64,000 bases of DNA from Blepharisma japonicum (lineage: Eukaryota; Ciliophora; Heterotrichea; Heterotrichida; Blepharismidae). Both the position numbers and the translations under genes were made by a program. The DNA lies in the NCBI GenBank assembly GCA_949751835.1, contig CATKHK010000006.1:62001-126000 (forward strand), written 5' to 3'. Below, piece after piece: positions 9,312 to 60,058 of the stretch. Each line of letters opens with the position of its first letter. Position 1 is the first letter of the stretch. The notes under the pieces are model-generated. The model had not been told where the DNA came from. It did not search any database and saw only the letters and a program-made list of their open reading frames with translations.

Positions 9312-9348
<37 letters not shown>

Positions 9349-24825: not shown

Positions 24826-25711
24826 TATTTAATAATTATAATTCATGATTTTTGAAATAGAAGTAAGAAAGAAAATACAATTAAAATATTGACCGCTTCT
24901 TGAAAAAAACCTTTAGTTCAATATTTTGACATATTAGAGCTCCTTTATGTGTACTTATTATTTATATATTTAAGTTATTGGATAATTATTATATTATGTT
25001 TTATATAGCTCTAAATTGATGACAAGCTTTAAATATTGCTTAATATTTGGTAAATAATTTATATTTTTGACAATTTGTTGTGGCTTGATTAATTTTCTTG
25101 TAAAATAAAAATGTCTTTTAACACTTATAAGAAGACTTAAATGAAGTAATAAGTGGAAATTTATACTATTATTGCTTGACAAACAGTTGCTTATTTTAAT
25201 ATAATTCCTAAGATTTTCACAATAATTATTAATTTATTAATAGCATAATCATAATATTTTCAGCTGTATTGCCATCCTGTCTATTCGATTCTACATTATC
25301 CCAAATTTGTGATTTAAAATGCTCTTTATGTTGAATAAATTTTTATTTAGGTAAGTTCAAAAAATAGGCCCATATTTAATGAGTTTTTTTTTAATTTTTA
25401 GCATTCAATTAAGATAATTTTATTGTAATTACTTATAGAATTCTAATAAAAAAAATATAAATAAAATGAATTTAATATTTTAAAATTTTCTTATCTTTAG
25501 ATAGTCAAGAATAAGAGAGTTTCTCTTAAATATGTATTTTAATTAGCATTATTAATCCTTAGATAAGAAAAATAAATAAAAGAGGATTTGTATAAAGTAA
25601 TATAATTATAGCCAAATTAAATTTTAATAAAATAGCCTAAGCTCAATGTATTTTGGAAATAAATAAAATATACATAAAATATTAAAAAACAGCTTGCTGA
25701 AAATATGATTT
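24826..25711. other. AT-rich intergenic region
   Basis: Lies between the copy B promoter side and the 3' end of the oxidoreductase gene. It is very AT-rich, and the only ORF (24994-25182, minus, 62 aa) is low-complexity and unlikely to be a gene. A short palindromic stretch near 25490-25570 contains CTTATCTTTAGATAG and CTTAGATAAGAAA. I see no RNA gene. Confidence 0.6.
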
Positions 25712-33110: not shown

Positions 33111-36100
33111 TTAATCGTCTTCTTCCCATCCTCCAGTTGCTCTTCCATCTAAATCAATGTCTGTACAATGAGTAATTGCATATAACATTTTTTCTTTCAT
33201 AACTTCTTTGTTTGTATATGCTGGCAATTCAATAGAAAAGAAACAAGTATGAGAGACTGGCAAATAATTGTTGACTGGTCCTTGAGGGAGGTATCGAGTG
33301 ATTTTCATATGTTTCCAGTCTTTTCCTGATGGCAGCTTGGATCTTCCCCACACAAATTTCAAATATAAAGATCTTTCTTTAGGAGTCATTTCTAATAAAA
33401 CTTCCCAAAAGGTAGAAATGTGAGGGTCATTTATGCTGCAGTTCTCGTAATCAGTATTTCCTTTAAGAATTTCTATATCAATATTTGAAGCTCCACAAAC
33501 AAGAGTTTCTACCTGTTTTCAGCTAAATAAATTTAAATAATCAATTGGTATCACTGCACTTATTCCATTTCTAATTGCTTCATACGCCTTTGCACCTTCA
33601 CTAAGCCTAAATTTTTCAATTAAATCAGCATACTCTTTCGCAGTTTCATAAGTAACTGGAATTTCTTTTCCATTCGGGATCAGCTCAACTTCACGTCCAC
33701 TTGAGTCTTTTGTGGTAAATTTCTCATCATAAGCATATGCAAAAGTCTCAGGCGTCAGCTGGTTTTCTGCAGGATTTCTTAAAATTTCTAAAATTTGGAC
33801 AGTGCATACATCAATGCCTCGGAGGTCTCTTGTGGTTAAAGGGTCCATTAGGAGGCGTTTTCAGAACAATGGAGGAAAAGATATATTTAAATTATTTTGG
33901 GTTCTGATAGCTGCCCCCATAAGTTTACCAAGGAATGTAAAAAGCTCGAGGTCTTGTGGGGTGTCTGCTGATGGGTTTATGATCCATGATTCACGGTTTT
34001 CGCCAATATTATGGACATTATTAGGGCATGGTACTAGGAGTCTTAGGTAGCTTGATTGGAGTTCGTCACACATGTTGCTCATAGACTCATTATAAGGCCC
34101 TCCTGCGTCGATAGAGGCTTCTCCACGATACGTGACTCGATATACTCTTTCTGAATTTCTGAACTCAGTATTAGGGATATTTATCATGCACCTATATATT
34201 TGTCCAAATATAGAAAACTGGCCATATACATCTACATCTTTTTTGTCCCTATGTCGTGCTGCTTTAGGACGATCTATAGTAATTTCTGTTCTTCTTTCAT
34301 TAACAGTTTTTGCTAAGCTGTCTTTTAAAATTCCATTTTTGAACCTGAAAAACACGTAGCTTCGAGAGCCTATAAACACCCTTTGCAGTTCAGACATAGA
34401 AGTTATAGAGTCTAGATGCAAATTAAATAAATACAAAGAAGATTCCACCCTTTTATTAAACCTCAGTAAAATTTGGTATAATTCTCGCATATCGTCTTTG
34501 CTAATTTTTTCTAATTCTTGATAGTAAATTAATTCGTTTTCGTTCGGATTAATTTCTTCATTTTTTAAATTCATGATGTCGAGACCTTTGGATTGGGTGA
34601 ATTCATCAAGGTAATTTACTAATTGTTCAGCGGCTCCATTTTTAAATAAATGCTTGTATTTTTGGGAGTAATTTTGCTGCCAGTCATTTTTAGTTTCTTC
34701 TGAGGCATAATTAAAATACGAATTTATCACATTTTTGGTCCTCCCAGTGAATTTTGGAATTATTTTAAATTTGTAGCCATAGTAGATAGAGTCATTATTT
34801 GAGGAAATATTTATAATATCGATATCTGTAGGAAATTTGGGAAATTCTGAAATAGTGATACTTTGTTCAGGAATTGTCAAAACTGAAACAAATTTCAGCG
34901 GCTCCATTTTGTCATTAAATTGGAAATTTGGTCTTTTTGTGACTAAAAATTTCCCATTTTTATAAAATTTGAATTTTCCTTCCTCAAAGTCTATATAGCA
35001 GCCAATAATGTCATTTACAGAAAATCCTTCTACATCTGAATAAATTATGATAGAGTTTTCGTGCTCTATGAGTTTCTGGGCCAATATTGATGAAAATGTG
35101 AATCCTAGGCCAATTTTTCCTCTTGAATTAATAGAAACTTCTACATAATTTCTTCCAATTTTTAGTTCAGGAGTAGTCGCGTATATTGAAGGGGAATCCT
35201 CAAATTTAATTAATGTCCTTTTATCAGTAGAGATGCTAGCATTTTCATTTAAATCGCTTCAGAAATGCTTTATTAAATAGCTGGAATTTATAGGATACCA
35301 TCCATATACAGTGTCACCTTTTGCAGTTAAATTATATTTATTGCCTTCTTTTTGTATACACTTTAAAGTTACAGATGAAGAATTATCACCAAAGCAGGCA
35401 ACTGGAGTTATGCTTTCAGAGATTTGAGTGAATTTGCAGACTTCTGTATCATTTTTGAAAAAAATTAACTCTTTAGTGTCAAAGTTTAGCAATATTGAAA
35501 GTAAGTCAGCTGAGGAGAAGCTGGGGCCATGGGTATTTGAGCCTTTACTGTAAAAGTCACCAGATTTTTTCCAAGTTCATGATTCTTTTTGGTAGCCAAT
35601 ACCTATACAGCTGTTGATGGCTGAGTCAATTTCGTCAGATTTTATGGCTCCAATATAAAAATTATCATTATTTCCATCACTGTCTAAGGCAAAAGTAATT
35701 TTTATAATCCCACTATTGAAATTTTGATTAAAAATAGCAGTTGCATACCCGTTCCCATTATCTCTTCTTGCAGTCCTATTTTTATTTTCTAGTAGAATTC
35801 CATTACCTTTAGGATTTTCCATCCAAAAGCAATCATTAAGCTGACTAAATGTCAAATTTTCCACATTTTCAACAGGAATTTTGCCTTTATTATCATAGCT
35901 AAAATAAATTGTCTCACTTGGATTCAGCATAGAATTGGGATCAATTTCTATATTAAGGAACAGTGCCCCTGGTATTTGAATTTTTTCCACTTTAGTTTGC
36001 CTTTTATAAGGATGCAGCGACTCTCTCTCCTCTTCTGCATTTTTACTGATCCTTTCTTTAAACCTGTCAAATAAAAACATTTCTAGTGCCTCATCTTTAT

Positions 36101-39100
36101 CTGTAAGCCCTTTCATATCAGAAACCAGCTCATTCAGCTCCATAAACCACTGTTCTTGATTTTCTATATTAGAAAAATTCCCAATTTCAAATAAAAATGT
36201 TATCAGGGCTTGCAAAATTTGGTTCCATGTTTTTGCAGCTTCATTTTCATGGTAAAGCTCATTGGCTTCTAATAGCGAAATTTCTATGATTTTTTCAATT
36301 GTAGGATTATTACTAATCATATAAGATTTCAATATATTTAAAGCCCGCAGTTTATCATCAACAGAATTTGCAGATAAAACAAATAAAAATAGTGGCTGAA
36401 GGAATCGAGGAGTATATAAAATTCTTAATTCTTCATTAGTAATTGCGAATTCTCTGAGTTTTTCAAGCATCCAAAGAGCACCGTTAGGTTTTACTGTCTT
36501 TTCGCCGCCAAGAGAAGTGGCGGTAAATCGATATCCTCAGTCATTTCGAGAGCCATCACTATGAAAATACCAATAAATCGTGCTTCGTTGGACCTCAAAA
36601 GAAACCCACTTAGCAGTCCCAGTTCCTGAAAAGTTTTTAATTTCTCCTTGTTTTGAAGGTTTTTCATAAAATTTCAAATAATCGCATGATTCTTCAGTGG
36701 CACATCTTGGGTCAAATTCTATACGGATTCCATTCGCCCCCGGGAAAGAAATGACCCCTTCAGCGTCAAAATTGTCTGCATAAGGATGGACGCTTTCGTA
36801 AGTTGAAGATTTTGATCCTGAGGTGTTGCTAATTAAATAGGAAATTAAAATATTTAAGCACTCTTTTGCGGCTTTTAATCGGAAATTTTCACCATCTAAA
36901 TTTTGTAGTAGTTTTCTAATAGGAGCTTCAAGGTGGTCTAATTCAGACTCTAGATGAGTTAAAAGACGTCCAAGGCTGGTTCTGCCTGGCATTGTGGTAA
37001 TCATATTAGGGTATTTTTTAAGTGTGCTGACTAGTAATTTCTTTGATATTGCCAGTCTTCTATTTTCTTCTATATCAAGCAATAAATTATAAAGCTCCAT
37101 AAGCGATAATCCATCATAATTAGCTGAGTCGTCTGTTTGAGCACCATTTGAATTTCCCCCAATTTTACGGTCTACTAGTCCATGAGTATCAGTCTCTGAC
37201 ATTTCCATAGATTTTAAAGGAATAATAGGACAATTTAGCACTGAATCTGCATTTTTTACAGCCACAAAAATATAATAATTTTTTATGTCTTGTGATGCAA
37301 TATTTAAAGCTCTACCCTCTTTGTCAGTAATTAATTGATATCCGTATGGCAAAATTATAGAATACACAGAAGTTACTTTTATAAAAGCAATATCTTTGAT
37401 AGAAGGGTTATTTTTTTCTGGTTGAGAAATTTTGATGGATACTTGGTTAGTTCTGTCATCATTGATGCTTAGATCTCCAATATCAGTAAATCCTGCAGCA
37501 CCTCCAGCTATAGAAAAACCTATGCAAGCGTTTCCGTTTGTTTTTTTTTCTTTTTTCATAGCTAATATTTTTCTTTTCGGGATTTCAAATTTAATTTCAT
37601 TTCCATTTTCATATATTTTTGCTATATGGTACCCAGGTGGGACTTTTTCAATTTTATCGAAAATTTTGATATCAGTCACCATTTCTTGTTCTAAACTTAA
37701 TGGTGGATTGTTCATATTTTCCACACCAAAACGATTCAACGCATAATCAATTGCTGAGCTCAAGTCGCTTGATGCTTTTAATGCTTCTTCTATTTCTTCG
37801 TCTGAAAATCCAAGCAATTGTAACCTTAATTTGTCTAAATATTGATCTTTTATTTGGACTTTTACATACCTTTCCCCTCCTTCTAACTCTTTGGGAGCCT
37901 CAATTTTTGATTGAAGCTCACCATCGTATTTATTTTCATAGACCTCAAAGCATAATAAACTGGCAGAAGCTCCAATATCTAGGTAAACCCCAAAATCTCC
38001 TATTTTAATTCCATTAAATACTGTTCCGCATATTTTTTCTATATGAATTTTTGAATTCTCATTTATAATTGTTACCTCTCCATTAGCTTTTGCATAAATT
38101 CTTATAATTAAAGGCTCAAATAAGCTTGCTTCTCCGTTTGCTTCATTATTTATAGCGAAATGAGGCCTTCCTATTGCAGTGGTGATACCAATTTCTAAAT
38201 CTCCTACAATAAGTCCACAAGAAAGTTTATTGTTTATAGCTTGGCCTTGTATAGCTGCCATTATTGTGATAGAGGCTAAAGGCTCGATATTTTTTTGAAA
38301 AATATCATAAAGTAAAGAATTTTTATATTCTTTTCTTTCAGAAGTTTGCTTTGGATTTTTTATTACAAAATGTTTAGTTTCATTTTGGTAAAATTCGGAT
38401 TTTCCAGTTAAGTCTTTAATCTTAAAAGAGCCTTCTTTAAACAGAGCCAATCTATAGATCTGCCCTGCTACTTTTTGCACCTTTTCTGGTTCTTTTCAAT
38501 CAATAATAGCTTGCTTTTCTTTAATCCCCATTTCAAAGCATTTCACAATTTTCACAATCGGTATATCTACAGACACCAATTCAATCGCTAATAGCTGGTC
38601 ATTATCGTTTCATTGGGCGATTTTATTTTGAGCTTCTTCTTCAGTTAATTGCTTTTCTTCCTCTTCTTTTTTTTCTTCACCTTGTGATACTGGTTTTAAA
38701 TGTAATTTTTTGGCTATTTCACTGATGAGCCTATTATAGCTGTTTTTACTAGTCGTTAACTGTGGCTTACTCTTAGAAATTACATTACCTATAATATTTT
38801 CTATTTCTGAATATTTTGGCTCTTTGGATTCTAAGGTGTCGATCATACAGACCATGGAAATTATATCAAGTTTTGTATATAAAGCACGGAGGTTTGCGAT
38901 GGAGTCACAGCTCGCGTTTATTAAAACATTTGAAGAGCTTCGAAGGGTTTCCCAGAATGAAATTGTGGAAGCGCTTATGCGGTCTTTTTCCTCACTATCA
39001 AGCTGATCGTTTAGCTTTGTATTAATTTGGGCTTCTATTGAGTCAATTTTTTCAAGATTTTCAGTTATAGTTGTATCTTCGATTATGGAATAAAATCTTG

Positions 39101-42100
39101 CATTTGGGTTAGTGATTTCTTTAATAATTCCTCGAGGAAGAGAACAGTTTAATAGCTTTGCATGGGAAAGAACTGTTGGTATTACACCATATCCATCAAA
39201 ATTTTTAGATGATGAAGCCATAAAATACAAAGCACCTGCATGAATTGCTGACAAAGGATTCCCTAGCATTAAAGATTCAGAGCCATCCCTTAGGGTTCTT
39301 ATCAACGCTTCTACTACCTCATATCTTCACCTTTCAACAGCAGTAAGTGATAAAAGCAAACTTTCAGCTTCATAGGCCCATCTAAGTGATATTTCTTTTG
39401 AGCTTTCATTTTCATACCAAATTGTGCCTTTTCCAATTTTAATAAGTAAAAATGAAATAAAATCGAATTTATTTCCAGTTAATTTTCCAATTTTTTCCCA
39501 ATAAGGAATGAATGTTTGTGGAGAATGCTGGGTAGAAATTATATGTCGTAATATCCGAGTTCCTAGTAGAATTGTTTTTGCGGAAGGAATTGCAAAGGTA
39601 ATTTTTAATAGAGTGTCAAAATATTCCTCACGTGCAATGAGCTTTGTAAGACAATGAGAGCCAAGCGACCCATATAGTGCTCATAATAATGAGCTGATAA
39701 AGTCAATTTGCCCTGATATTGCTTTTGATGTAGATTTGCATGATAATGGCAACTCGTTATACATAGAAATTGCATCTTTGATTTCATTGTAATAGTCTTG
39801 GAATTTTTCTTTGTTTGAGGTTATAGCTTTTATTGTTATATAAAAATCTAAATTCCCTGCTTCATCTTTAAATTCTGCTGGCGCATTTTCTGGAATTTTT
39901 TCTGGAATAATTATCCCTGGCTCATCCGCTGATAAAAATAATTCCAAAAATTTAGCAAAAGAATTTTCAACTGACTGCTTGATTCTTCTATTAAAATTTT
40001 CTATAACTTGGCGTATATTTGTCATATTATAGTCTTCTAAGGCTTCATAATAATCATTTCTAAGATGATGCCACAGCTGGGAGTTGCTTATATAATTCTG
40101 TATATCTTGTGGAAACTGGTCACTGAAATTTTTAAATACATTTAAATATCTGAAAAAATCATATTCGCCTTTAGAATTTTTATTTTCTTCATAACATTCC
40201 AAAGTATCTACAATAGAAGAGTCTAGTCTTATAAGATCATTTTGCTGGATTATTCCTTTCATAGCAGGATCAGCTTTATTAATAAAATCATCAATGATTT
40301 CACATAAATAAAATCCTTCGAAATTTTCTGTTTCCTTTTTAAACTGTCTTATCCATTCTTTTACTGGATTTTTTACCAATTCACTCGAAATTATATTTTT
40401 TCCGATCCAGTTTTCTCCTTTTACAATTTGTGAAATTATGAATTGGTCGTTATTTTGAGCCATAAAAATTTTGTCAAATTTGAGCTCGTCAAATAAAACT
40501 TTAATAAAGATTTCTTGAATTAAATTTTTTTTGGATTCGTTAGGCTCAACCCATGAGCCGACAATTGAGTATAAAATTTGTTTAAATAATCCTCATGAGC
40601 TTTTGGATAATTTTAACTTTAATAATTCTCGGGTTTTTGTGTCAAACTCTAGCTCAGGGGAAAGCAAATCTTCATAGTTCGTAAAAGAAAATTCTAAATT
40701 GTTTGAAATTCCTGTCAGATATTTTTGATTTGGTTTTTCCACATCTCTTTTTATTAAAATATATTTTCTTTCGCCTTTAAATAAAATCTCCTCTGTTGCC
40801 TTTTCATATCCATTAATTAGATGGTTTTCTAATAAAATTTCGGCAATAGGCTGAGCCTCTCCACCTTTTTCAATTACTAAATATAAATTATTCTCATCTT
40901 TTTTTTCTTCTAATAATATTTTTTCAGAATTTTCGGGTACTTCATTTTCTTTAAAAATTCCCAATTTAGTTATGCAGGATTCTTTTTGGAAAAGCTTTGC
41001 AATTTCGTCTTCTCCAAAATTACCTTTAGCCCATTTAAGTAAATGTGAAATCGTCATTGAAAATTGTTTTTCTAAAATCAAATCCCCATCAATTCCTTTT
41101 AAAGGGTAGCTCATAGCTTCAATTACAGATAAATAATACTCATAATCAGAAATTTTATTTTTATTGTCATCATTTTTTTTCAGCTCTTTTTGCAAAGTTT
41201 CATAAACTTCAAAAAATGAATGCTGCACACATTTTAACAAAAATGGGTCAATTCCTTCTAATCCATCCCAACAGTGATGTTTTACACCTTTTTTCTTCAA
41301 AGAGTCACTGAAAATTTTAACAATCGCAGTTTCATTTTTATTAGAATTTTTAATCAAATCAGAAAACAACAATAATCCAAGTACTCTTGCAATCCCTTTA
41401 GTTCGCCTTTTTTCTACAGTTTCTATGATTTCTTGAAGTGGAACTGATGATTCTAAAAATTTGGTAACAAAATCAGCGACTTTAAGAAATTCTTTAATAT
41501 CTTCGTTTTCAGGTTCTTTTATTTTGGAGGCTGTTGTAAGAAGACCTTTTAGTTTTGATGAGGTTATAACTGCCTTTTTGACTGCTTTTCATTTGCTTGC
41601 GGTTTTAAGAGGAAGAGAGTTTTTACTTTGCATCCTTGCAACACTTGACAATAAATTTTTCATTACTTTGTTGACACCAAGCTCATTTAAGCTAAATCTA
41701 TATTCTCCTGCTAATAATAATGCTGATTTTATTACAATGTCTCTATTTATGTCTGTATAAGTAATATCTGGGTTCCCATGATCCATTAGCTGCTGTTTAT
41801 GCTTTTGTGCCCACCCTCTTATTAAATTACTTTGCTTTATAATAAATTTCAGTGTCAATCCAACGTCCTCAGGAGAGTCAAAAATCTTATTAACTGTGTC
41901 AATTACATCAAAAAATGCAATATATACTGCAAAAATTGCTCTTTCAGCCTGATCCATTTCTAAGCCTCCAATATTAGTAGAAGGTCCGAAAATTCCTGCT
42001 TTTTTCTTTAAATTTGCCCATGCTGCTTTAACTCTGTCACTTCCGTCAATTAATTCTTGTAAAAATTGGATGTTAGAAAAGCTAGGATTTTTCTTAATTT

Positions 42101-45100
42101 TTTGATATGCAATAATATAGTCGCCAAGTGTTATGGCTGAAGACCTGCTTTTTACTATACGCTTTTTGATTGATTCAGGGTAGCCTGATAATGTTAGCGC
42201 TCTTTTAGCTTTTTTGACTAAACTTTTATTAGTCGCTAGGGTAATTAAATCTTGGTTTATAGGCGAAGGGTCTTTGATTATTGCTAATGCGTTATCAGAT
42301 ATTCCATATTTCAGCATAGGATTTGCTAATAATCTAACAATTTCTTCATTTTCTGGCTTACTATCATATTCTCCAGATACTAAATTTGATGCAATAATTC
42401 CCATCAAAATCTTTCCCGCTTGCATGATACTTGTAGGCCAGACTTCTGTGTATCTTGCCTCTATATAAGATTTTATTTCAATTTTCCATCCATAGTCATT
42501 TTGCGACCCATCTGAATGAAAAGTAAAAAATAATAAAGGATTTTTTACTTCAAAAGGTTCTTTAGGCCAATCAGTACCTGTCCATTTAGCAAGTTTATTC
42601 ACCTTCTCTTTTTCAGTTCACAGTTCTAAATAATCGCAGCTGTTTTCTGTTTTGCATTGAGGATCAAAGATCAATGTATATTTTTTTGCTCTTGGAAATT
42701 GTATTAAATATTCAGTATTCATATTATCTTTATAGTTATGCTCGCTTTCAAAAATCTGGCTAAAAGCTTTTGGTTCTGTATTCAAAATTGAAGGTTTTAC
42801 TGGAAATCGGCGGAGTAACAATATTAAAGTTTGAATTTCTGATAAAATTTTTGACAAGAAATTTATATCTGTTTTTATGACCATAAGTAAATGCAAAAAT
42901 ATTTCAAGTGTTTGATTAATAAACGTGTCTTTGGATTTTATGTAAAATTCGTCAGGAATTTCTCCATTAGGGTATAGCTCGAAAATTTGTTTAATTATTT
43001 CAGAAGTTGCTTTGAAAAAGGAGAGTGAGTATAAAGATAAAATTTCAAGCCATTTTGATGAAAATGTAGATTTAGCTGCTTGAGAAAAAATAGCGGTTTG
43101 TGTGGTTTCTAATAGTTTTATTAAAGAAATATCATAAGGCTTTCCTTGTATTGCTTTTGTAGATTCTTGGGATGCAAATTCAATTAGTAAGTCGATAAAT
43201 TTTCTTATTAATATTTCTTGGTCTTCTCCTACAAGGTCTAATGCTGAAAATAATTTTTCTGGCTTTTTCATTTCGCTGAAAATTTTTTCCTGCAGCTTCA
43301 TTAATCCTTCATTATCTTCTTTATTTTTTTTTCTATTTTCAAGCCGAGTAACCATAAATAAAAGTTTTTCTTTAGGATCTCCATAAAATATATCAAAGCA
43401 TAAACTTATGGTCAGCGATGCTTCTTCTGACGATTTCGTATTAGGCAAAAGTAATATTAATTCTGTCGAATGGTCAAATATTCTTTTTTTTATTTGAGAA
43501 GTTAGATCATTTTCACTATGAAACTCTGATATCAACAAATGTGCCCTAATAATTTTTTGTAATGATATAAAACAGTTATGACAATTTTCTAAATTCAGCT
43601 TCGAAAACTCATTTTTCTTAACTATAATTATGATTTTTTCAAAAATTATGTCAATTTGGTCTAATATAGAGCATTGCAAATCTATTGAAATTCCTTTCTT
43701 TTTTGGTTGAGTAAATGCTTTATTTTCACTTTGAAGGAAGTTCAGGACATTTTCATTAACATTAGCTAGCTTATTCAATATAAATGTCAAAATATCTCCT
43801 GATGTTACTCCTAAATACTCATCGTTAATTTCTTCATTTCCCAAAATTTTAAATAATTTATTTTCTTTGAAATTATTTTCCACATGCTTTTCTATGCCCA
43901 ATAATTTTGCAACTTCTTCAGGATAATCCTCAGGATTAATCAGTCGTATTTTTGATACTCCACTTTGGCTTGTATAAATTCTAACGACATCAGGCAGAGG
44001 TTTATGCTTTTCTTGAGGCTCTTTAATTCCATTTTTATAAAAAGTGACTGTTTTCTCATTCATATCTAAAAGCATTCCTATTTTATCTCCAATACTTCAT
44101 TTTTCCCATTTATAAATTTCAGTGCTTTTCAGCCATATAGTGGAATCTGCTTGATATGCAATAGTTGCGAAGCTGTTTTCTGCCCAACAGGTAAGTGAGT
44201 TGTATTTTGCATCAGCAACTCCAAGCATTAAATTCTCAGTAGAAAGCTTATCTATTATTGCTTCGAAGTAGTGGATGCCTGATCGAAATTCCTCCTCTCC
44301 AAGAACTGTTGACCAACCACTTTCTCCAGATACAGCGGTCCCATAATCTTCTATATTACTTTCAGGCCCACATTTATCTGCACTTCATTTTGAGGATAAA
44401 GACCCAAAATCTTTAAAAATTTTTAATAAAGGAAAAACTGCTTCTAAAACTTGTCTATCAATTTGACTCACAGCAAAAAGGCTTATAGCCAGTGTTAAAA
44501 TTGTATTTAAATTCCCAGAAGCAATACATAGCGACAGCAGCGGTACAAAATTTGTTTTTCTTTCATTTCTCAAAATTGAATCAAAAAATTGAGTAATTAC
44601 AGTTAAACTATTAACAATCGCTAGCTCATTTGACTGTAAAGACAGAGGTGGAATTTCTTTTAAAATTTCACAAGCTTGCTGTATTAATCTCTCATGAAGC
44701 TCAGGCTTAATTTCTTTAACTGCTTCTATAATCATAATAATAGTTCCGAGCCCAGCACTGATCGCAATTTCTGCTTTATTTGATATTGCTGGTTTTTTTA
44801 TTTTATCTTTTTTCTCCTCATTTATACCTCTCAATTTATTAAATTGTTCAATTCTCAATAAACTCTCAAACGATTTTGAAATTGCCTGGAATTTTTTTAT
44901 AATTTCTTTTGTGGATGAATCTTCGGTTCTTTTTCTGAAAATGTCTTCAATTAGATTTTTTATTGCATCAGCATGCTTTTCGTGAAAGCAGTCAGGGTTA
45001 TCAAGGCTTAATATCATGGATTCTTCTTGGTCAGTTGTGACATCTTCTTCTTTTGGTTTGGTTTTTTCAAGTCCTGGGGCTTGATAGACGTCAAGATCAG

Positions 45101-45239
45101 ATCTGGATGAGAGAGAATCCATGTCAAAAATAATGGAAGGGTTTGATATGAAAGCTAAGTCATCTTTTAAGGTTTTAGAAATTCGGTCGAGGTCTAAGGA
45201 ATCAACTCTTGATAATATATCACTCAAAGAGTTACCCAT
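33111..45239 (-). CDS. Giant HECT E3 ubiquitin ligase, 4042 aa
   Basis: ATG 45239 (MGNSLSD, a possible N-myristoylation signal) to TAA 33111-33113. All pieces lie in one phase, joined by at least 11 in-frame TGA=Trp codons, with no intron. Modules by rough residue: SPRY-like ~300-440; CUB-like with DPQCKTENSCDYLEL ~840-930; UBA ~2465-2500 (LLGFSDEEIEEALKASSDL); a second CUB-like unit with FDPRCATEESCDYLKFYE ~2820-2920; a third, weaker unit ~3075; SPRY-like ~3150-3300 and another ~3380; HECT ~3650-4042. The catalytic Cys is in LPVSHTCFF (codon 33243-33245). The Trp of WKQVETLVCG, conserved in HERC-type HECT domains, is a TGA. The HECT domain resembles HERC/HECTD4 types, but no RCC1 repeats are visible. 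Targets unknown. Confidence 0.93.
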
Positions 45240-45754
45240 TTTTCTATTATAGACAGTTTCATATTGAAATAGACAGAACAAGTTAGGGTAAGAAAGCCTT
45301 AATGTTTAATTGGAAGGGGTTTTAGATAATGAAAATCTATGAAGGGTTTTGATAATTCTAATTTTTTATAGATAAAATATTTGATCTGAAGAAATAATAA
45401 GATTTACATAATTTGTGTATGAAAAGGGGAAAATAGTCCCTTAGTCAAAAAATATTTTGTTTGATATTTTGAATTAATTTCCCTATTTTTATATGCAGTG
45501 ATATCAGAAACTAAATGAACTTCTATTGTTTCCAGCTTTTTCTTTATAACTATAAGCATATATCAATTGAAATATATTTCAGAACTTGATGCATTATTTT
45601 ACTCATAAAGAAAAAGAGTTTAATGTAAGATTAAGGTTTATAAATTTTGCGCTCTATATAGTTTGATAATAAATCATATTTAATAAAAAGGAAAACTAAT
45701 CTATTAGTATCATCAAATATCATCATTTATACCACGTCTCAATAAAAATTGTTT
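45240..45754. other. Intergenic region upstream of HECT gene
   Basis: Contains the HECT promoter. AT-rich; no gene or RNA recognised. Confidence 0.6.
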
Positions 45755-51431: not shown

Positions 51432-51920
51432 ATGCAAGACGTTTCCCAATGGGTCGCCTTAGCAAGCACTCTTAGCGAAAATAAAAACAAATTTTTTTCC
51501 CACATTGAGCCTATAAAAGAAGCTGTACACACTATTGAAGATTTTTTGGAGGAATCGAAAAAACAAATGGATACTTTATTATCGAATGAAAATATTACCG
51601 ATCTCGATTTTAAAAGCCAAATTTCTCATATAAGGATATTAACAAAGCTACTATTTCAAAAGCGAAAGTCTATGATTTTATGTTGTGTTAAAAAGTGCAT
51701 AAAAAGCTTAAAAAAATATGAAAAACCCAAAAATGACAAAAATATGAAAGAGATTTGTGTTGATATTCTAAGCACAATTGAAAACGAAAAAGGGCTGCCT
51801 AAAACTTCTGAGGAACTGAAAAAAATCAATAAACTGAGAACAATAGCAGAAAAAATGATAAAAAATTTGGAGTGTACATTAGAAGAAGATAGTCAAATTT
51901 GTATAAAAATAAAAGTATAA
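51432..51920 (+). CDS. Unknown helical 162-aa protein
   Basis: ATG 51432 to TAA, with no UGA and no intron. The protein is almost wholly predicted helix, rich in Lys, Glu and Leu (EPIKEAVHTIEDFLEESKKQ; then LRTIAEKMIKNLE). A central Cys pair lies in MILCCVKKCIKSL. There is no signal peptide or membrane segment. Not recognised; the composition fits a small helical-bundle or coiled-coil protein. Confidence 0.65.
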   Translation: MQDVSQWVALASTLSENKNKFFSHIEPIKEAVHTIEDFLEESKKQMDTLLSNENITDLDFKSQISHIRILTKLLFQKRKSMILCCVKKCIKSLKKYEKPKNDKNMKEICVDILSTIENEKGLPKTSEELKKINKLRTIAEKMIKNLECTLEEDSQICIKIKV

Positions 51921-52528
51921 ATTAGAATATCAAGAGAATTGACATAGAAATCCGTATTAAGTAGATCGAATTAATGCCCGCTTTTTTAAAGATATTATTT
52001 GCATATGAATTTCTCAAAAAATGATATCAAGTTATAAAGATATATGGCTTAATAAGCTAGATATTTATCCTAAATTTGATCAAGACCCTTTAATTTGAGA
52101 ATTCCGAGGCAAAATAATAGATCTTCAGTTCCTCACAATAACTTCTAATACAAGTTTTCAAATTAATTTATCGGAATGAATTATAAACGTTTACCTAAAA
52201 AAATTATAAGAATAAGATAAATATGGGTTCTTGTTATGGAAAAATGCACGATATTTCGATTTTAATTACAAAATTAGAAAATATTAAATGTCAATAAACA
52301 ATACTATAATAAATTTATCTAATTGTATTTCTTTTCTAATTAATTTAAAACTAGATTTCAATTTTCATCACAGATTTAATTTTCTTACGGCCAGACAGTT
52401 AATTTATAAAGAAAATAAGCTTTGTATTCAAATTTTATTTCAATTGGTATAAATCCCTCGAGCTATATTTAAAAAACTTTCCCTATACTATTGCATTATT
52501 CAATGTGGCTTCTGATCCATTGTAATAA
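51921..52528. other. AT-rich region with one small ORF
   Basis: It holds a 62-codon frame at 52021-52209 that needs two TGA=Trp codons (MISSYKDIWLNKLDIYPKFD...). The composition is protein-like, but no relative is visible. It may be a gene remnant or chance. The rest shows nothing. Confidence 0.4.
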
Positions 52529-52923
52529 ATGGGAACAGCACATGATAAGTCTAAAGCTGAAGAAAATCCAAACAATATTATTGAAATAAATCCTTCAAGG
52601 ATAGATTGTATAAATATACATTCCGTTCATTTGAATTATAAATAATCTAAATTATTATTCCTATTTTCTTCATATACTCTACAACTTTCAACAACATGCA
52701 TTTCTTTTTCTTCCATTCCACATAACTTTTCATGCATAAACATAATTTTGATAGGAGTTCTCAAGAGGAGGTATTTAAATCAATCGTGTCAAGTTATACT
52801 TTAATGAATCAAAAAATTCACAATGTAAAAATAGCAATAAGGCGAAGTGGAAGAAATAAAACCCAAGGCTGACAATCTCCAAAAAGCATAGAGAAAAACT
52901 TAAAATTTCACTGAACGTTATAA
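52529..52923 (+). pseudogene. MGxS small-protein family, degenerate copy 1
   Basis: Two blocks resemble the intact family members downstream. Block 1 (52529-52648) starts MGTAHDKSKAEENPNN and ends at an in-frame TAA after 39 codons. Block 2 (52732-52923) is in another phase and contains SSQEEVFKSIVSSYTLMNQK, matching the family core of copies 2-4. The 80 bp between them is diverged. With a stop and a phase change separating the two halves, this is most simply a decayed gene, although block 2 alone has its own ATG and could be a short remnant protein. Confidence 0.6.
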
Positions 52924-53286
52924 TGACAACTTTGGGTTAAATTTAAAAACGGCTAATTTCTTAACATATTTTCTATTTATGCTTAAAGTCATATAAATAA
53001 TACTGATTGGAAAATTATTATATTTAGAAAGCTCTGTGTAAATTGCGTATATAAATAAACTCCTTAATGCAATTTGATGCGTGAATTATTATTATGTAGC
53101 TAAAATTTGATTAACAGAAAATATTTTAAGTCAAATATTTTCTGTACTTTAGAAACTTAATAATAATATATGAAACTGGATTATCGTTTTTGAAACTTCA
53201 AAATTTGAACACTTAACTGGGTTTCAAATATTTTTTACCATTTTTATACTGAATTGTTTTACAGAATTAACTAAGCATATAAAAAT

Positions 53287-53598
53287 ATGGGATCAAGCAA
53301 TGATAAAATTGTAAAGGAAGAAACAGAGCAGGAAAGATCTCGATCAAGTTCATCCGAGATCGAAATAGATTTATCGCCTGTGCATATAGACGATTATGAT
53401 CTAAAAGGGAGTTCAAAAGAAGAGATGTTCAAATTCATAGTATCCAATTATGCGCTGATGAACAAGAGAATAAAGGAATCTAATGAGGGCATAAAGAAAG
53501 AACTTAAAAGAGCAAATAAAGCAAAAACAGTGCCACCACAATCACCTGATAGATTAAAAAGAAAAGTAATACCACACTTAAGAACAGTTGTAAATTAA
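53287..53598 (+). CDS. MGxS small-protein family, copy 2 (103 aa)
   Basis: ATG 53287 to TAA. Begins MGSSNDKIVKEE, so Gly2 and Ser3 could allow N-myristoylation (inference). An acidic/Ser-rich head leads to the family core DDYDLKGSSKEEMFKFIVSN, then YALMNKRIKES, and a Lys-rich tail with a Thr-x-Pro element (KTVPPQSP). The core recurs in copies 1, 3 and 4 on the same strand within 4 kb. The spacing D-x-Y-x-hydrophobic-K-G-x-S-K/N-E is constant. I know no described family with this core. Short, soluble and probably helical in the core. Confidence 0.75.
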   Translation: MGSSNDKIVKEETEQERSRSSSSEIEIDLSPVHIDDYDLKGSSKEEMFKFIVSNYALMNKRIKESNEGIKKELKRANKAKTVPPQSPDRLKRKVIPHLRTVVN

Positions 53599-54847
53599 TG
53601 AAAATAAACAACTTTTTTATATAAATCTATTTGAAACTTTAATTATGATTGATTTCTTGCTCATCGGTGTATATTTAAAGATTTCGAAAAGGAAAAATGG
53701 AACACCATATATTAGGCTTAGAGCTAAGTTTAGAATTATATAAAGGGAATTTAATTTATTATTATTTTTTTCATAAATTTCAAAAATTGATAAAGAAAAT
53801 ATTTTGATTGATGTTTTAATTATTTTTAAACTATTTAATTTTTACAAAAAAAATTAATCATTATAATAATTTTTTGTTTTATTTTTAATTAAATTTTAAT
53901 TTCTTCAAAATTTCTGAAAAAAAAAAGCACTAAAATTCGATTTATAAAATATCTAATCGAGCTAATATCGATGCATTTTAATATTGAGATCTAGTATGAG
54001 TATGGTGATTTATTAAAGGATTCTTGATTAGAAAATGGTGAAACTAGGAAAATGAATATAGTAAAAAATGCATCAGATAGTGCCAAATAATATTTATACA
54101 GTAAACACTTTCAAAAAACTGTTTAAGTGTTTTAAATGTTAGAATTAAAAATTCTATTCGGAAAAGTTTATGACAAGTGCAAGTGAGCAGATTAAACGAA
54201 AATTGAATAATTAACTGTTAAAGTGCTTTTTTATAGCAAAATTAATATTCTAATAAATGGTAGTAAAAGTCATCTTATATAATGCAAGTATGCCAAAATG
54301 TGATCTAGAAATGCCAAAAGCCATTCATTATTTGAGTTTTAAGCAATGCTTGGTTCAATTTCATGCTTCATTTAAAATTTTTCTTAGAATTATTAATTAC
54401 TAATTGATAAAAATAATTGATAACCCTTGGGCTCAATTTTTATACTTAGAAGACGAATATTTAGGACTAAAAAGTTTCTAATTACTCGCAGTTGAATTTT
54501 ATGAGAAAAAAAATAAGAATGAGAAAAATGGAAAAGCAAAATATTTAGACCTCAATATCATGGAGCAATGAAATTTCAATCAATTGAATTAGTTTTAACT
54601 TTTCCTTTTTCAACTGTGTAGACAAATAAGTATATGGTGTCAAAGAAAATTGGCAAAAAAAGATAGGGCTTTATAGGAGTGAATTAAAATGCATATTATG
54701 ATATATATGATTTATTATATTTATCCTTGATGATCTAAATGCATTTATAATAGAAGTACCTTTATATCCAAAAATACTTGAATAATAGAGAGGTAACGAG
54801 AAATTTCAGAAAAATTATTGTTATATGGCAGAATTAATAGCTTATAA
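53599..54847. other. AT-rich spacer in the small-gene array
   Basis: No gene is supported. From ~54560 onward the sequence is the left part of the ~1-kb tandem repeat unit (similar to ~55570-55887). Short open stretches such as 54290-54403 (37 codons) may be remnants of a decayed family member, but I cannot align them. Confidence 0.5.
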
Positions 54848-55153
54848 ATGGAAACAGTCAATAAAACTTTAAAGGAAAATTGAAGCAAAGAGCAATTTGA
54901 TTCAGACACCACAGCTAGCAAAAATTTAGACTGTTATATCGACAACTTAAATAGTTATAAGATTAAAGGAAACTCAAAAGAAGAACTGCTGAAATCTATA
55001 GTTTCGAACTATACGCTAATGAATAAAAGGATACAAAACGCTAAAGCAAGCTTGCAGGAAAGCCAAAGAAAACCTAAGAAAAGAAATACAGTCCCTACTA
55101 AGAAGCCTAAGCTAATGCAAAAATTGAATATGGCATTTGAGTTCTTTATTTAA
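54848..55153 (+). CDS. MGxS small-protein family, copy 3 (101 aa)
   Basis: ATG 54848 to TAA 55151-55153 with one TGA codon at 54881-54883. The start is METVNKTLKENW, where the W is that TGA. In copy 4 the aligned residue is TGG, which independently shows UGA=Trp. The core is NSYKIKGNSKEELLKSIVSN, then YTLMNKRIQNAKASLQES, and the tail KKRNTVPTKKPKLMQKLN. Unlike copies 1, 2 and 4, it has Glu, not Gly, at position 2, so it cannot be N-myristoylated. A standard-code reading would miss this gene entirely. Confidence 0.8.
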
Positions 55154-55887
55154 AATTTTAATATAAATAAGTATTTATAATATGATTTCTTTTAAGTTTA
55201 CTGTAAATTCTAACAATACTACTTTTAAGCTTTTGACTAAGAATAATAAAACCAAAATAAAGAAATAGCTATGAAGAAAAATGGAGTAGAATTAATTAGT
55301 AGAACATTTTTAAATATATGAAATTAATGGAGCTGATTTAGAAGAGTTAAAAATTAAACCCTGGATTAATTAAAATATGAGTATATAAACGCAGGTTTTA
55401 ATATTCCAAAGCAAAAATAGGTGCATTATAATAAAAAATTGTAAGTCTTAACCAAGTGATACACCAATAATTTCTTGAAATGACGATGTAAATAAATCTA
55501 CGTAGTAAATGATTTGATAAATTTGTTCTTTAATTCTGTCAAAAAGAGTTTAAATTCCCTAAAACTTTATTTTCTATCAGATATTCAATCGATTGAATTA
55601 ATTATAACTTCGCTTTTTGAACATTGAAAAATAAATAAAATTTATATTAGTTAAATATATGGTTTTAAAGGAAAATTGGTGGTAAAAGATAGAGCTATAA
55701 AGATTGGAACTAAAATGTATATTATGGTACATAAATTTATTATATTTATGCTTGATTCTAAATTCATTTATTAAGAGGTATCGCCTTTATGCCCAAAAAT
55801 ACTTGAATCACTATCAAAAAATATCCAGGTTACTAGAATCTTTTGGAATCATGGTTGGTATATGGAAGAGAATTAATTGTCTTATAA
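55154..55887. repeat. Spacer of the ~1-kb tandem repeat
   Basis: The 3' flank of copy 3 (55154-~55565) matches the 3' flank of copy 4 (56158-~56575), with shared blocks such as GTTTACTGTAAATTCTA and AGGTGCATTATAATAAAA. The segment ~55570-55887 matches ~54560-54847 upstream of copy 3. The frame at 55704-55904 is a by-product of this repeat. Confidence 0.75.
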
Positions 55888-56157
55888 ATGGGAGCAAGCA
55901 ATAACACTTTAAAGGAAAATTGGAACAAAAATCCAGCTGATTCTGCTTTCGCAGATAATTATAGCATTAAAGGAGCCTCAAACGAAGTACTGCTAAAATA
56001 TATATATTCGAACTATGCGCTAATGAATAAAACAATGCAAGTTACTCAAGCAAGCTTACATGAAAGTCAAACGAAGCCAGGGGAAAGAAAGACATTCCCT
56101 ACTGAGAAGCCTAAGCGAGTGCAAAAATTAAATACGATATTTTGGGTGTTTGTTTAA
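55888..56157 (+). CDS. MGxS small-protein family, copy 4 (89 aa)
   Basis: ATG 55888 to TAA. MGASNNTLKENWNKNP is followed by a shortened head and the core DNYSIKGASNEVLLKYIYSN, then YALMNKTMQVTQASLHES. The tail RKTFPTEKPKRVQKLNTIFW aligns with copy 3 almost throughout, and the last residues are hydrophobic in both. The close match plus matching flanks marks copies 3 and 4 as the most recent duplicates. Trp12 is TGG here, against TGA in copy 3. Function unknown. Confidence 0.8.
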   Translation: MGASNNTLKENWNKNPADSAFADNYSIKGASNEVLLKYIYSNYALMNKTMQVTQASLHESQTKPGERKTFPTEKPKRVQKLNTIFWVFV

Positions 56158-56827
56158 AACATTAACATGAATAAGTAATTAAAATATAATTTCGTTTAAG
56201 TTTACTGTAAATTCTAGCCATATTGCTTTAAGCTTTTGAGCGAGAATAAGAAAATCAAAATGAAGAAATCTATGTGGAGAAAATGGAAAAGAGTTAATTA
56301 ATAGGAAATTTTTAAACATATTAAATTAATAGAGTTGATTTAGAAGAGTTAAAACTAAACCCTGAATTAAATTAATATATGAGAATATAAATGTAGATTT
56401 GATTATCCCAAAGCAAAAATAGGTGCATTATAATAAAAATTGCCAGTTTTAATTAAGTGATACCCCAATAATTTCTTGAAATATGATATAACACAATTTT
56501 TTTAGCAAATGTTTTTTAAATTTCTTTTTTAATATTTTAAAAAGAGCTTAAATTCCTAAAGCTATATTTTATATTAGATTTTCCTTATATGCTTTTAATT
56601 ATTAATTGCCTCTCTAAAGTAAAGTAAATCTAACAAATCTATTATTCATTAAATTTCCATGCGAAAAATTCTGAAATATGCAATAAATTTATTTTAAAAT
56701 AAAGAGCTTTAATAAGAATATTTCCAATAATCAACTGATTTACCAAATTTTATCCTATTTAATTTTAATATTCCTGCTAATTCTTTTGAGCTCTCTCCTT
56801 CTCTCACCACCAAATTTGATATAAAAT
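56158..56827. other. End of tandem repeat and promoter of next gene
   Basis: Up to ~56580 this repeats the 3' flank of copy 3. The remainder (~56580-56827) is AT-rich unique sequence before the next gene. No further gene seen. Confidence 0.6.
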
Positions 56828-57511
56828 ATGGACAGGTATCAACTTGCCACTTCTCTTTTAGGTTTATGGGACGAAAAGACATGGATGCCAATATTTAGAG
56901 GTCCCAGATATCGTCGTTACCAATCAATTGACAAGATGATGGATCTCATGGAAATTGCTGGAAAATCCGCCCCTGTTTTCCCAGTCGAAGCAGTCCTTTT
57001 GAATCCAATGGATGACGAGTGGGACGATCAGATGACTTATATCAATATCAATTACGGCTGGATATGGAGTCATATTTTTGTGCATTTAGGATTACCATTG
57101 AGCGTTTATATCTACAACCACAACTTGATTCATTATAATGTCCACTATCGCGCTCTCAAATGGTTTTTACCTTTAGTTATGGTCTGGCAATTCGAAAAAT
57201 GCTATAAATATTATAGAACTCAGCTCACAAAAGGTATTTTATTTGATGAATATGTACAAGCAAGAGCTGATGAGCTGATAGCTCAAAGAGAACATTTACT
57301 TCACACTGACCAGGTAAAGAGATATTTAAACTGGCAAATTGACTTTAAAGAGACAATGCAAAACATTAAAAGAGAACAAACCAACAACCATGCTAGCGAT
57401 TTCAAGCAGGCAGAACTTGCCTTACAAGCTTTTATTGGTAGATGGGTAGATCCTGCTGTAGGAATCAAGTATCCATTGGCTGGACCTCGCTATCAGTGGG
57501 GAGGATTTTAA
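56828..57511 (+). CDS. Unknown 227-aa membrane protein, possibly mitochondrial
   Basis: ATG 56828 to TAA; Trp-rich and all TGG; no intron. Two hydrophobic stretches at ~75-95 (YGWIWSHIFVHLGLPLSVYI) and ~112-125 (ALKWFLPLVMVWQF) could be a membrane hairpin, followed by a charged helical region and a C-terminus ending GPRYQWGGF. There is no classic signal peptide. The aromatic-rich short protein with one or two helices and exclusive TGG use recalls ciliate-specific subunits of respiratory complexes, but no motif allows assignment. Function unknown. Confidence 0.75.
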   Translation: MDRYQLATSLLGLWDEKTWMPIFRGPRYRRYQSIDKMMDLMEIAGKSAPVFPVEAVLLNPMDDEWDDQMTYININYGWIWSHIFVHLGLPLSVYIYNHNLIHYNVHYRALKWFLPLVMVWQFEKCYKYYRTQLTKGILFDEYVQARADELIAQREHLLHTDQVKRYLNWQIDFKETMQNIKREQTNNHASDFKQAELALQAFIGRWVDPAVGIKYPLAGPRYQWGGF

Positions 57512-58981: not shown

Positions 58982-60058
58982 ATGGGAAACTGCAACCTAC
59001 GAATGGACAACTATGATCCCACTGTCAGCTTAAATCGGCAGAATTTCCAATTTCAATACCCAATAGGCAAAGGAGGATTTGGCAAAGTCTGAAAAGTGAC
59101 GCAAAAAAAGAGTAAAACGATCTACGCTTTAAAAGAAATGCTCAAATCTCGAATTATTGTAAAAAGATCTGTTCATTCTGTTATGAACGAAAGACGTCTT
59201 TTAGCGATTCTCAGGCATCCTTTTATCGTTAATATGCATTATGCATTTCAAGATCGCGAAAATCTATATTTAGTCATGGATCTTATGCCAGGTGGAGACC
59301 TTCGTTATCACCTCAGCAAAGTTCATAAGTTTTCTGAGGAACAAACAAAATTTTTTGTAGCTTGTTTAGTCATTGCATTCGAATATCTTCACAAAAATAA
59401 TATAATTCACAGAGATATCAAGCCTGAAAACATCGTTTTGGACGATCTTGGGTATGCACATTTGACAGATTTTGGGATAGCCAGGGTTTTTCAGCCTGAA
59501 AATTCTAACGAAACTTCAGGGACTCCTGGCTATATGGCTCCAGAAGTTTTGTGTAGGCAAAACCATGGTTTTGCCGTTGACTATTTTGCTCTAGGTGTTC
59601 TAGGATTTGAGTTTATGACTGGAAGAAGGCCTTATTTAGGCAAAGATAGAAAAGAAATTAGAGATGCAATTTTAGCGAGGCAGGTGCAGCTTAAACGAAG
59701 CGACATACCTGAAGGCTGGTCACTTGAAGCTGCAGATTTTATTAATAAATTAATACAAAGAAAGCCGCAAAACCGACTCGGATCCCTTGGCGTAGAAGAA
59801 GTAAAAGACCATGCATGGCTTAGAGACGTCCAGTGGGAAAAATTATTTGATAAAAATCTGAATCCTCCATTTAAGCCACCAGTCGCTGATAATTTTGATA
59901 GTAGACAAGTTATGAATGGGTGGAAAGATGATATTTCCGGCGGCACAAAAGAAGCGTCAAATCAAGGCATGTTTAACGGGTACTTTTATGACCTTAATTT
60001 GCAAAGCGAAGGAATTAATTATACAACTGAAACTTCAAAGATTGAGAAGAAAATATAA
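58982..60058 (+). CDS. YANK/STK32-like AGC protein kinase
   Basis: ATG 58982 to TAA gives 358 aa. MGNCNLRMDNYD is a likely N-myristoylation and palmitoylation site. The kinase domain spans ~25-285: Gly loop GKGGFGKVW (29-37, W37 encoded by TGA 59090-59092), catalytic Lys51 in YALKEM, HRDIKPENIVLD, LTDFGIA and the GTPGYMAPEV activation end. Substrate-binding segment MDLMPGGDLRYHL and the post-domain VQWEKLFDKNLNPPFKP match STK32 (YANK) kinases, including the DLRYHL motif. All catalytic residues are present. A membrane-bound Ser/Thr kinase is expected; targets unknown. Confidence 0.92.

What the first reader, a model, noticed from the sequence alone, without database searches (positions are those of the whole stretch)
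52529..56157. Undescribed tandem family of ~100-residue proteins
Four copies on the + strand share the core D-x-Y-x-(I/L)-K-G-x-S-(K/N)-E...I-x-S-N-Y-x-L-M-N-K. Three are intact and one is decayed. Three start MG-(S/A/T), suggesting lipid-anchored proteins, while one lost Gly2. Heads and tails vary and the core is constant, a pattern of birth-and-death evolution with a conserved interaction surface. I know no family with this core. Copy 3 and the degenerate copy 1 are not visible as complete genes under the standard code.
Basis: partly seen in the sequence, partly recalled or inferred. Interest (0 to 1): 0.75.

Follow-up and report, generated by a model that had tools for sequence, protein, structure and literature searches.

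The report
Small orphan protein family in Blepharisma-like ciliate
A single-celled ciliate carries a fast-changing family of small, possibly membrane-tethered proteins without a convincing match in the databases searched; four of nine copies sit side by side, and one is interrupted by a short DNA segment that looks like the kind ciliates cut out when they build their working genome.

Summary
Four same-strand copies (c1-c4) share a core, Y-x-(I/L)-(K/R)-G-x-(S/T)-K-E-E...I-V-x-N-...-L-M-N, beyond chance. They belong to a family of nine loci found in this genome, a Blepharisma-like somatic-type assembly with UGA=Trp. The five other members begin MGNC or MGCC. Pfam, NCBIfam, PDB sequence and Foldseek searches gave no convincing relative.

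Three corrections. First, c1 is not plainly decayed: its frame is open on both sides of one 104-bp segment flanked by the direct repeat ATAA. That fits the published short, TA-bound internal eliminated sequences (IESs) of Blepharisma; excision could not be tested. Second, the copy with the loosest core is c4, an intact ORF: core pN/pS is 0.19 for c2-c3 but 1.23 for c3-c4. Third, lipid anchoring is likely only for the MGNC/MGCC members. All four tandem copies lack that cysteine, c3 lacks Gly2, and the classical myristoylation pattern is met in 1 of 8 starts scored.

The array lies in an ancient duplicated block: nine collinear gene pairs with another contig, which carries one family member in the same gap. 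Most likely these are N-acylated helical adaptor proteins of one lineage, expanded locally: a new family of an ordinary kind. The IES-like insert and the duplicated block are the better leads.

The parts
52529..52639 (+). Copy 1 (c1), 5' piece: MGT start, 37 codons up to the Tyr that aligns with core column 1
   Evidence: translation; sequence.
52640..52743 (+). 104-bp insert in c1. The direct repeat ATAA at 52638-52641 and 52742-52745 makes the exact cut ambiguous. Length is not a multiple of 3; no GT..AG ends by eye. IES-like.
   Evidence: one place in the genome for stretch 52600-52790 (which skips very common words); IES class described in PMC9942856.
52744..52923 (+). Copy 1 (c1), 3' piece: 59 codons plus stop, in phase with the 5' piece across the insert; holds most of the core and the tail
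53287..53598 (+). Copy 2 (c2), intact ORF of 103 aa, MGSSNDK start
54848..55153 (+). Copy 3 (c3), intact ORF of 101 aa with one TGA read as Trp; no Gly2 (MET)
55888..56157 (+). Copy 4 (c4), intact ORF of 89 aa, MGASNNT start; most private core residues among the window copies (8 of 28; c1 6, c2 3, c3 1)
54575..55558 (+). First unit of the youngest tandem duplication (holds c3)
   Evidence: 74% identical over 1,022 alignment columns to the next unit.
55584..56556 (+). Second unit of the youngest tandem duplication (holds c4)
51432..51920 (+). Left neighbour gene of unknown family; its paralogue stands left of the single family copy on contig C50
   Evidence: 44% aa identity; no Pfam match.
56828..57511 (+). 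Right neighbour gene, homologue of the PDB chain named ATPTT7 (6ynx; Tetrahymena mitochondrial ATP synthase subunit, organism recalled); its paralogue (98% aa identity) stands right of the single family copy on C50
   Evidence: (E 5.4e-50).

Best explanation
This is a small, apparently lineage-specific family of roughly 77-105 residue proteins. SHOWN: nine loci in one genome share a roughly 28-residue core; relatives outside the array begin MGNC or MGCC; the core changes more slowly than heads and tails between c2 and c3 or c4; copies multiplied in tandem at one locus that also exists, with one copy, in an ancient duplicated block. INFERRED: the ancestral protein is myristoylated on Gly2 and palmitoylated on the adjacent Cys, so it sits on a membrane. 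Its core, a Tyr-Gly turn followed by a capped helix, docks on a protein partner. The variable basic, Ser/Thr-rich tail tunes membrane contact, perhaps by phosphorylation. In the tandem array these parts have drifted: no palmitoylation Cys in any copy, no Gly2 in c3, a relaxed core in c4, and an IES-like segment inside c1. The array is best read as an expanded and partly relaxed branch of an acylated adaptor family.
For: Nine loci: array c1-c4, C50:321470-321784, C27:252822-253052, C138:48127-48381, C17:66332-66511 (exon 1) and C79:83021-83206 (exon 1). A core query at E up to 10 returned these nine and no other. All five members outside the array start MG(N/C)C. C17 and C79 carry a putative 15-nt GTAAG..TAG intron at the same codon boundary of the core, and the next stretch continues it; introns of 15-16 bp are predominant in Blepharisma (PMC9942806, passages). 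An N-myristoyltransferase gene is present (PF01233, E 7.5e-69). Core pN/pS is 0.19 (c2-c3) and 0.29 (c2-c4), against 0.68-0.86 for heads and tails, though core pS is saturated (0.86-0.87). AlphaFold2 gives helix 44-80 in c2 (block pLDDT up to 90) and helices 17-34 and 44-71 in the C27 member. Under neutral simulation the c3 and c4 frames stayed open in 0.5-3% of runs.
Against: PROSITE-style myristoylation pattern met in 1 of 8 starts scored; position 6 is Asp or Glu in 6 of the other 7 (and the translations). No transcript or protein data. Helical hydrophobic moment of the core no better than shuffles (fractions 0.10-0.87 for nine single members, 0.20-0.66 for column means of eight). c3-c4 core ratio 1.23. 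No partner known. Overall model confidence is low (mean pLDDT 63 and 72, pTM 0.30 and 0.44). The tail phosphorylation idea rests only on basic residues near Ser/Thr, which are common in such tails. C50 is the weakest member by sequence (best E 0.0048-0.089) and rests also on its MGNC start and its place. That the family is confined to one lineage was not tested: no other ciliate genome was searched.
Confidence: 0.5

Rival explanations
1. The array is a decaying pseudogene cluster: only the loci outside it (C50, C27, C138, C17, C79) are functional, and c1-c4 are relics at different stages.
For: c3-c4 dN/dS 0.71 overall (bootstrap 0.36-1.50), coding identity 76, 76 and 74% by codon position, close to that of the non-coding flanks (75 and 82%). 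Core c3-c4 ratio 1.23. c1 interrupted; c3 without Gly2; no Cys at positions 3-4 in any array copy.
Against: c2-c3 core ratio 0.19 and c1(3')-c3 core ratio 0.16, both with saturated pS. c2, c3 and c4 frames open; a neutral walk from c3 or c4 to their present distance kept the frame open in 1-3% of runs, both lineages together in 0.5%. The net length difference between c3 and c4 is a whole number of codons (36 nt).
Confidence: 0.27
2. The 104-bp segment in c1 is an internal eliminated sequence (IES) present in the assembled somatic-type sequence because it is retained or only partly excised; with it removed in development, c1 is a normal gene. (This can be true together with the best explanation.)
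For: Direct repeat ATAA containing TA at both ends and length 104 bp match the published class: short IESs of about 65-115 bp, about three quarters of all IESs bounded by TA-containing repeats, about 70% intragenic (PMC9942856, passages). By eye not a GT..AG intron, and much longer than 15-16 nt. The stretch has no other match in the genome, as expected of short IESs, which are mostly non-repetitive. The 3' piece stays open over 59 codons (chance about 0.8% by local composition; the 5' piece about 5%) and its core ratio to c2, c3 and c4 is 0.25, 0.16 and 0.39.
Against: No reads or germline assembly at hand. TA-rich DNA makes a 4-bp repeat cheap. No terminal inverted repeat seen by eye. c1 has changed the Lys/Arg-Gly of core columns 4-5 to Asp-Arg, unique among the nine. 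The c1 ratios rest on saturated pS (0.91-1.16). 104 bp is not one of the two named most abundant short lengths (72, 110 bp). skips very common words.
Confidence: 0.35
3. The proteins are not lipid-anchored at all; MG starts are incidental and the core is a soluble helical binding module.
For: Classical pattern fails in 7 of 8 starts scored; one copy lacks Gly2; no Cys at positions 3-4 in the array copies.
Against: MG(N/C)C is kept in 5 of 5 members outside the array although the rest of their N-terminal regions varies; the genome encodes an N-myristoyltransferase. PPM1A and PPM1B are N-myristoylated (title of a cited reference, seen) and, from recall, begin MGAFLDK, with Asp6-Lys7 as in c1 and c2.
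Confidence: 0.2

Closest known systems
Small dual-acylated anchor proteins such as smAKAP and AKAP7 (recalled)
   Same: Small size, MG..C start in the members outside the array, one central helix, basic Ser/Thr-rich parts; could work by tethering a partner at a membrane.
   Different: A recalled AKAP-RII helix pattern is found in 0 of 8 sequences; no AKAP model among the Pfam matches of 6 members.
DinB-like / ClbS proteins (PDB 3dka, 6anr)
   Same: Short likeness SKEELxKxIxxNxxLxNK (3dka E 0.0057 and 6anr 0.052; 0.021 and 0.014).
   Different: Chains of 155 and 178 residues, four-helix bundles by recall. The best stretches lie at residues 14-76 of one chain and 5-27 of the other, so the likeness is read as chance or convergence.
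Short TA-bound ('periodic') IESs of Blepharisma stoltei (PMC9942856, passages)
   Same: The c1 insert: 104 bp, TA-containing direct repeat, intragenic, one match in the genome.
   Different: Found in a somatic-type assembly; excision not shown.
Lineage-specific young gene families of ciliates (PMC10810533, search listing and abstract start only)
   Same: Lineage-specific families are its subject; this one too is small, fast-changing and without database relatives here.
   Different: Whether that paper covers anything like this family I did not look up.

Membership tests
N-myristoylated proteins (classical PROSITE PS00008 pattern, recalled) | Gly2 followed by allowed residues, small residue at position 6 | tested here: not met
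   met by c4 only, 1 of 8 starts scored (c1 not scored; it has Asp6); position 6 is Asp/Glu in 6 of the other 7. Gly2 itself is present in 7 of the 8.
N-myristoylated proteins (classical PROSITE PS00008 pattern, recalled) | Organism encodes an N-myristoyltransferase | tested here: met
   PF01233 at C78, E 7.5e-69.
Dual-acylated (myristate plus palmitate) proteins | Cys next to Gly2 | tested here: inconclusive
   Present in 5 of 5 members outside the array, in 0 of 4 array copies. The modification itself was not testable.
A-kinase anchoring proteins (smAKAP-like) | Amphipathic helix fitting the RII-binding pattern (recalled) | tested here: not met
   0 of 8; helical moment not above shuffles. 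The RI-type pattern was not tested.
DinB-like / ClbS | Four-helix bundle with metal ligands, about 150-180 residues (recalled) | tested here: not met
   Single-exon members have 77-105 residues; one model has helices 5-18, 44-80 and 96-100, the other two helices. Foldseek of the second model gives nothing with E <= 0.001. Both models are weak.
LAMTOR1 and BORCS5 (recalled as small MG-start lysosomal proteins) | Match to the Pfam models | tested here: not met
   Neither is among the six families listed for 6 members at E up to 10 (HMMER's filters drop most matches above about 0.1).
Blepharisma IES, short periodic class | Length about 65-115 bp, TA-containing terminal direct repeat, often intragenic | tested here: met
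   104 bp, ATAA repeat, inside the c1 frame; class as described in PMC9942856.
Blepharisma IES, short periodic class | Precise excision during macronuclear development | not testable with these tools
   No reads and no germline assembly available.

The most novel reading that the evidence does not exclude
c1 is a switchable gene. Its TA-bound 104-bp segment is an IES that is removed in some macronuclei and kept in others, so excision turns on a full-length protein while retention leaves a 38-residue Gly2-bearing peptide. In this way a member of an acylated signalling family would be controlled by programmed DNA editing.
Probability: 0.08. Interest if true: 0.7.

Novelty: new member of a known kind. 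Interest (0 to 1): 0.33.

Why it matters
It adds a bounded family (nine loci found, a constrained core, distinct N-terminal types) to a ciliate genome, and it gives a clear case of local expansion with relaxed constraint against a single-copy sister locus. More useful than the family itself are two testable leads. One is an IES-like segment sitting in an otherwise open gene of a somatic-type assembly. The other is a nine-pair collinear duplicated block, which raises the question of a large-scale or whole-genome duplication in a heterotrich.

Tried and rejected
Known family: Pfam, 6 of 9 members scanned, gave only weak matches (first member: MRVI1 E 0.0025 at 17 bits against cut-off 27, linker histone 0.012 at 16.3 against 22.4; linker histone in 2 of 6 members), read as composition. 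NCBIfam, nine entries (c1 as its 3' piece, C17 and C79 as exon 1), gave nothing below 0.033. PDB profiles of six and nine rows gave the same two DinB-like chains. Foldseek of the C27 model gave 6 matches with E 7.2-9.9; the model is weak.

Dropped rows: eight genome-search matches with E 0.43-2.94 (C66 and C106, C30, C26 and C7, C2 and C58, C46) were set aside as chance and not examined.

Amphipathic helix or coiled coil as the interaction surface: not supported. The 100-degree moment is no better than shuffles, and the column means peak near 70 degrees instead.

AKAP reading: the recalled RII pattern is absent.

Intron reading of the c1 insert: rejected by eye. No GT..AG at any junction that the ATAA repeat allows, and 104 bp against 15-16 nt.

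Repeat or MITE reading of the insert: stretch 52600-52790 matches only itself (which skips simple repeats and very common words).

C27/C138 as a duplicated-block pair: no shared gene between 5 kb upstream of each or in the 1.5-kb flanks; one short match (35 aa, E 3.9e-4) vanished with low-complexity filtering and composition statistics. C17/C79: only the family gene itself in the 1.5-kb flanks. Wider flanks were not fetched.

Relatives outside this genome: not obtained. The window's genome has no relatives in the collection, and profile scans of viral contigs and genome contigs did not run for want of a conserved stretch.

Literature: 'heterotrich + myristoyl' gave one paper, on Paramecium calmodulin (PMC9608856, listing only). 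A search for at least 3 of ciliate, myristoylated, palmitoylated, small proteins, AKAP gave 95 papers, of which 12 were listed; no listed title or abstract start concerns such a family. On genome duplication: 12 papers, 11 listed; passages of three seen; 66 papers, 10 listed, none opened for that question; PMC10547551 holds all three terms.
Full report
Setting. The window is bases 62001-126000 of contig C6 (820 kb) in a 45.2-Mb, 224-contig assembly. Many long ORFs hold TGA read as Trp. CCCTAACA repeats occur in the assembly, at contig ends such as that of C6 (77 forward and 91 reverse matches, reversed-pattern control 0), and two family members carry putative 15-nt introns. The B. stoltei facts used for comparison (41 Mbp somatic genome, UGA=Trp, predominantly 15 and 16 bp introns, telomere repeats that are permutations of CCCTAACA) come from passages of PMC9942806.

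The observation. Four same-strand copies lie at the stated place: c1 52529-52923, c2 53287-53598, c3 54848-55153, c4 55888-56157. Whole-genome searches with c2 find the other three at E 1.2e-11 to 1.8e-4, and with c3 at 4.3e-18 to 1.7e-5. The likeness is real.

The family is larger than the array., searches with four further members and one with a core consensus give five more loci: C50 (MGNCVDDNK..., 105 aa), C27 (MGNCAEREE..., 77 aa), C138 (MGNCIERKE..., 85 aa), C17 (MGCCAERPS...) and C79 (MGCCSDRVR...). In C17 and C79 the ORF stops inside a GTAAG..TAG 15-mer at the same core boundary, and the stretch behind it continues with KLK; no transcript confirms the intron. The core consensus at E up to 10 returned these nine places and no tenth. 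C50 is the weakest by sequence (E 0.0048-0.089) but also has the MGNC start and the matching place in the genome. Eight other matches with E 0.43-2.94 were set aside as chance. Intron-split or more distant members could still be missed.

Core and constraint. The 28-column core reads Y-x-(I/L/Y/F)-(K/R)-G-x-(S/T)-(K/Q/N)-x-(E/V/D)-(M/L/V)-(F/L)-x-x-(I/M)-x-x-(N/S)-(Y/H/Q)-x-(L/I)-(M/L/F)-(N/T)-x-x-(I/L/V/M); only c1 departs at columns 4 and 5. Between c2 and c3 the core has pN 0.16 and pS 0.87 (saturated), heads pN 0.59, tails pN 0.43; between c2 and c4 the core has pN 0.25, heads 0.42 and tails 0.48. So the core is the slower part over these deeper splits. The youngest pair breaks the rule. 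c3-c4 have dN/dS 0.71 (bootstrap 0.36-1.50), coding identity 76, 76 and 74% by codon position, and non-coding flanks at 75 and 82%; their core has 14 non-synonymous and 3 synonymous differences. Against each of seven other members used as outgroup the changes that can be placed fall mainly on c4 (2-6 against 0-1). Yet both frames are open, which neutral simulation reproduces in 0.5-3% of runs. c4 is best called relaxed, or changing under new demands, not dead.

Copy 1. The 5' piece (37 codons) and the 3' piece (59 codons to a stop) are in phase and open. Between them lie 104 bp bounded by the direct repeat ATAA (52638-52641 and 52742-52745), with 2 G in 104 bases; 55 of 63,896 windows of that size here have so few. 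A search with 52600-52790 matched only itself (which skips very common words). The 3' core compares with c2, c3 and c4 at pN/pS 0.25, 0.16 and 0.39, with saturated pS. PMC9942856 (abstract and passages) describes about 40,000 IESs in B. stoltei: about a quarter short (under 115 bp) and largely non-repetitive, about three quarters bounded by TA-containing direct repeats, about 70% inside genes. The segment fits each of these. Against: TA-rich DNA makes such repeats cheap, no inverted repeat is apparent by eye, and c1 alone has replaced the basic residue and Gly of core columns 4-5. Without reads the case stays open; I give it 0.35.

Genome context. Translating all window ORFs of at least 60 codons (stop to stop) against 50 kb of contig C50 (296001-346000) shows nine gene pairs in the same order: 28101 (eIF3b-like, inferred from its eIF2A and RRM matches), 47114, 49806 (SF-assemblin match), 51432, 56828 (ATPTT7), 58131, 58982 (protein kinase), 61135 (ubiquitin-conjugating enzyme) and 62448. 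Eight of nine are in the same orientation, the ubiquitin-conjugating enzyme being turned. The block covers window 28-64 kb and C50 309.8-334.4 kb; other window genes, for instance the giant ORF at 33111-45305, have no counterpart in that stretch. dS is 1.2-2.3 in eight pairs and saturated in the ninth, with dN/dS 0.016-0.14 in the eight. In the gap between 51432 and ATPTT7, C50 has one family member and the window has four. So the locus is probably ancestral and the array a local expansion. The c2-c3 and c2-c4 splits (dS about 1.9, near saturation) may be about as old as the block, and c3-c4 (dS 0.38) is much younger. c2, c3 and c4 have 28-32% identity to the C50 member, their neighbours 44-98% to theirs.

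Anchoring. Gly2 is present in all array copies but c3 and in all five others. MG(N/C)C is kept in 5 of 5 members outside the array and in 0 of 4 inside it. The genome encodes an N-myristoyltransferase. The classical pattern fails in 7 of 8 starts scored, chiefly for an acidic residue at position 6 (c1, not scored there, also has Asp6). That PPM1A and PPM1B are N-myristoylated I saw as the title of a cited reference; that they begin MGAFLDK, with Asp6-Lys7 as in c1 and c2, is recalled. I judge acylation likely for MGNC/MGCC members, uncertain for c1, c2 and c4, and excluded for c3 by the need for Gly2 (established knowledge).

Structure and mechanism. AlphaFold2 from six and nine sequences gives one long helix over the core (c2, 44-80) and a possible helix pair (C27, 17-34 and 44-71), with low overall confidence. 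Foldseek of the second model finds nothing with E <= 0.001. The core has hydrophobic pairs but no significant single face, so one amphipathic docking face is not shown; packing against both its own first helix and a partner would fit. My working mechanism is a membrane-tethered adaptor whose helix binds a partner, with a variable basic tail. The family, its constraint and its history are shown as far as stated above; the anchor, partner and tail roles are inferred.

Novelty. No convincing Pfam, NCBIfam or PDB relative and no such family in the titles or abstract starts listed. A new orphan family of a common kind. The search 'Blepharisma + whole-genome duplication' gave 12 papers, 11 listed; I looked at passages of three of them (PMC9942806, PMC11441545, PMC11925944), where that phrase occurs once each, in the title of a Paramecium reference. 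A second search was read as a listing only. Whether a Blepharisma duplication is in print elsewhere, or in supplements, I cannot say.

Noticed in passing
window 28101-64000 and contig C50:309762-334360 (L041-L043): Nine collinear gene pairs with dS 1.2-2.3 (one saturated) and low dN/dS: an ancient duplicated block with gene loss, possibly part of a whole-genome duplication in this heterotrich.
   Followed up: partly
window 52640-52743: 104-bp IES-like segment with flanking ATAA repeats, unusually poor in G (2 of 104), inside an otherwise open gene of a somatic-type assembly.
   Followed up: partly
window 15861-20084 and 20626-24828: Two tandem sets of minus-strand ORFs with hydrophobic stretches resemble two sets on C50 at 296.7-306.0 kb at only 23-37% identity, perhaps a second, older tandem family next to the block.
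   Followed up: no
window 52223-52297: Short ORF MGSC... of 24 codons upstream of c1; an MG-C start with no core seen behind it, perhaps chance or a remnant.
   Followed up: no
window 58982-60058: Protein kinase gene that also begins MGNC; its paralogue on C50 is 89% identical.
   Followed up: no
window 9089-10840: Long Glu/Gln-rich low-complexity stretch (EEEEQ repeats) in one ORF, followed by an overlapping ORF in another frame.
   Followed up: no
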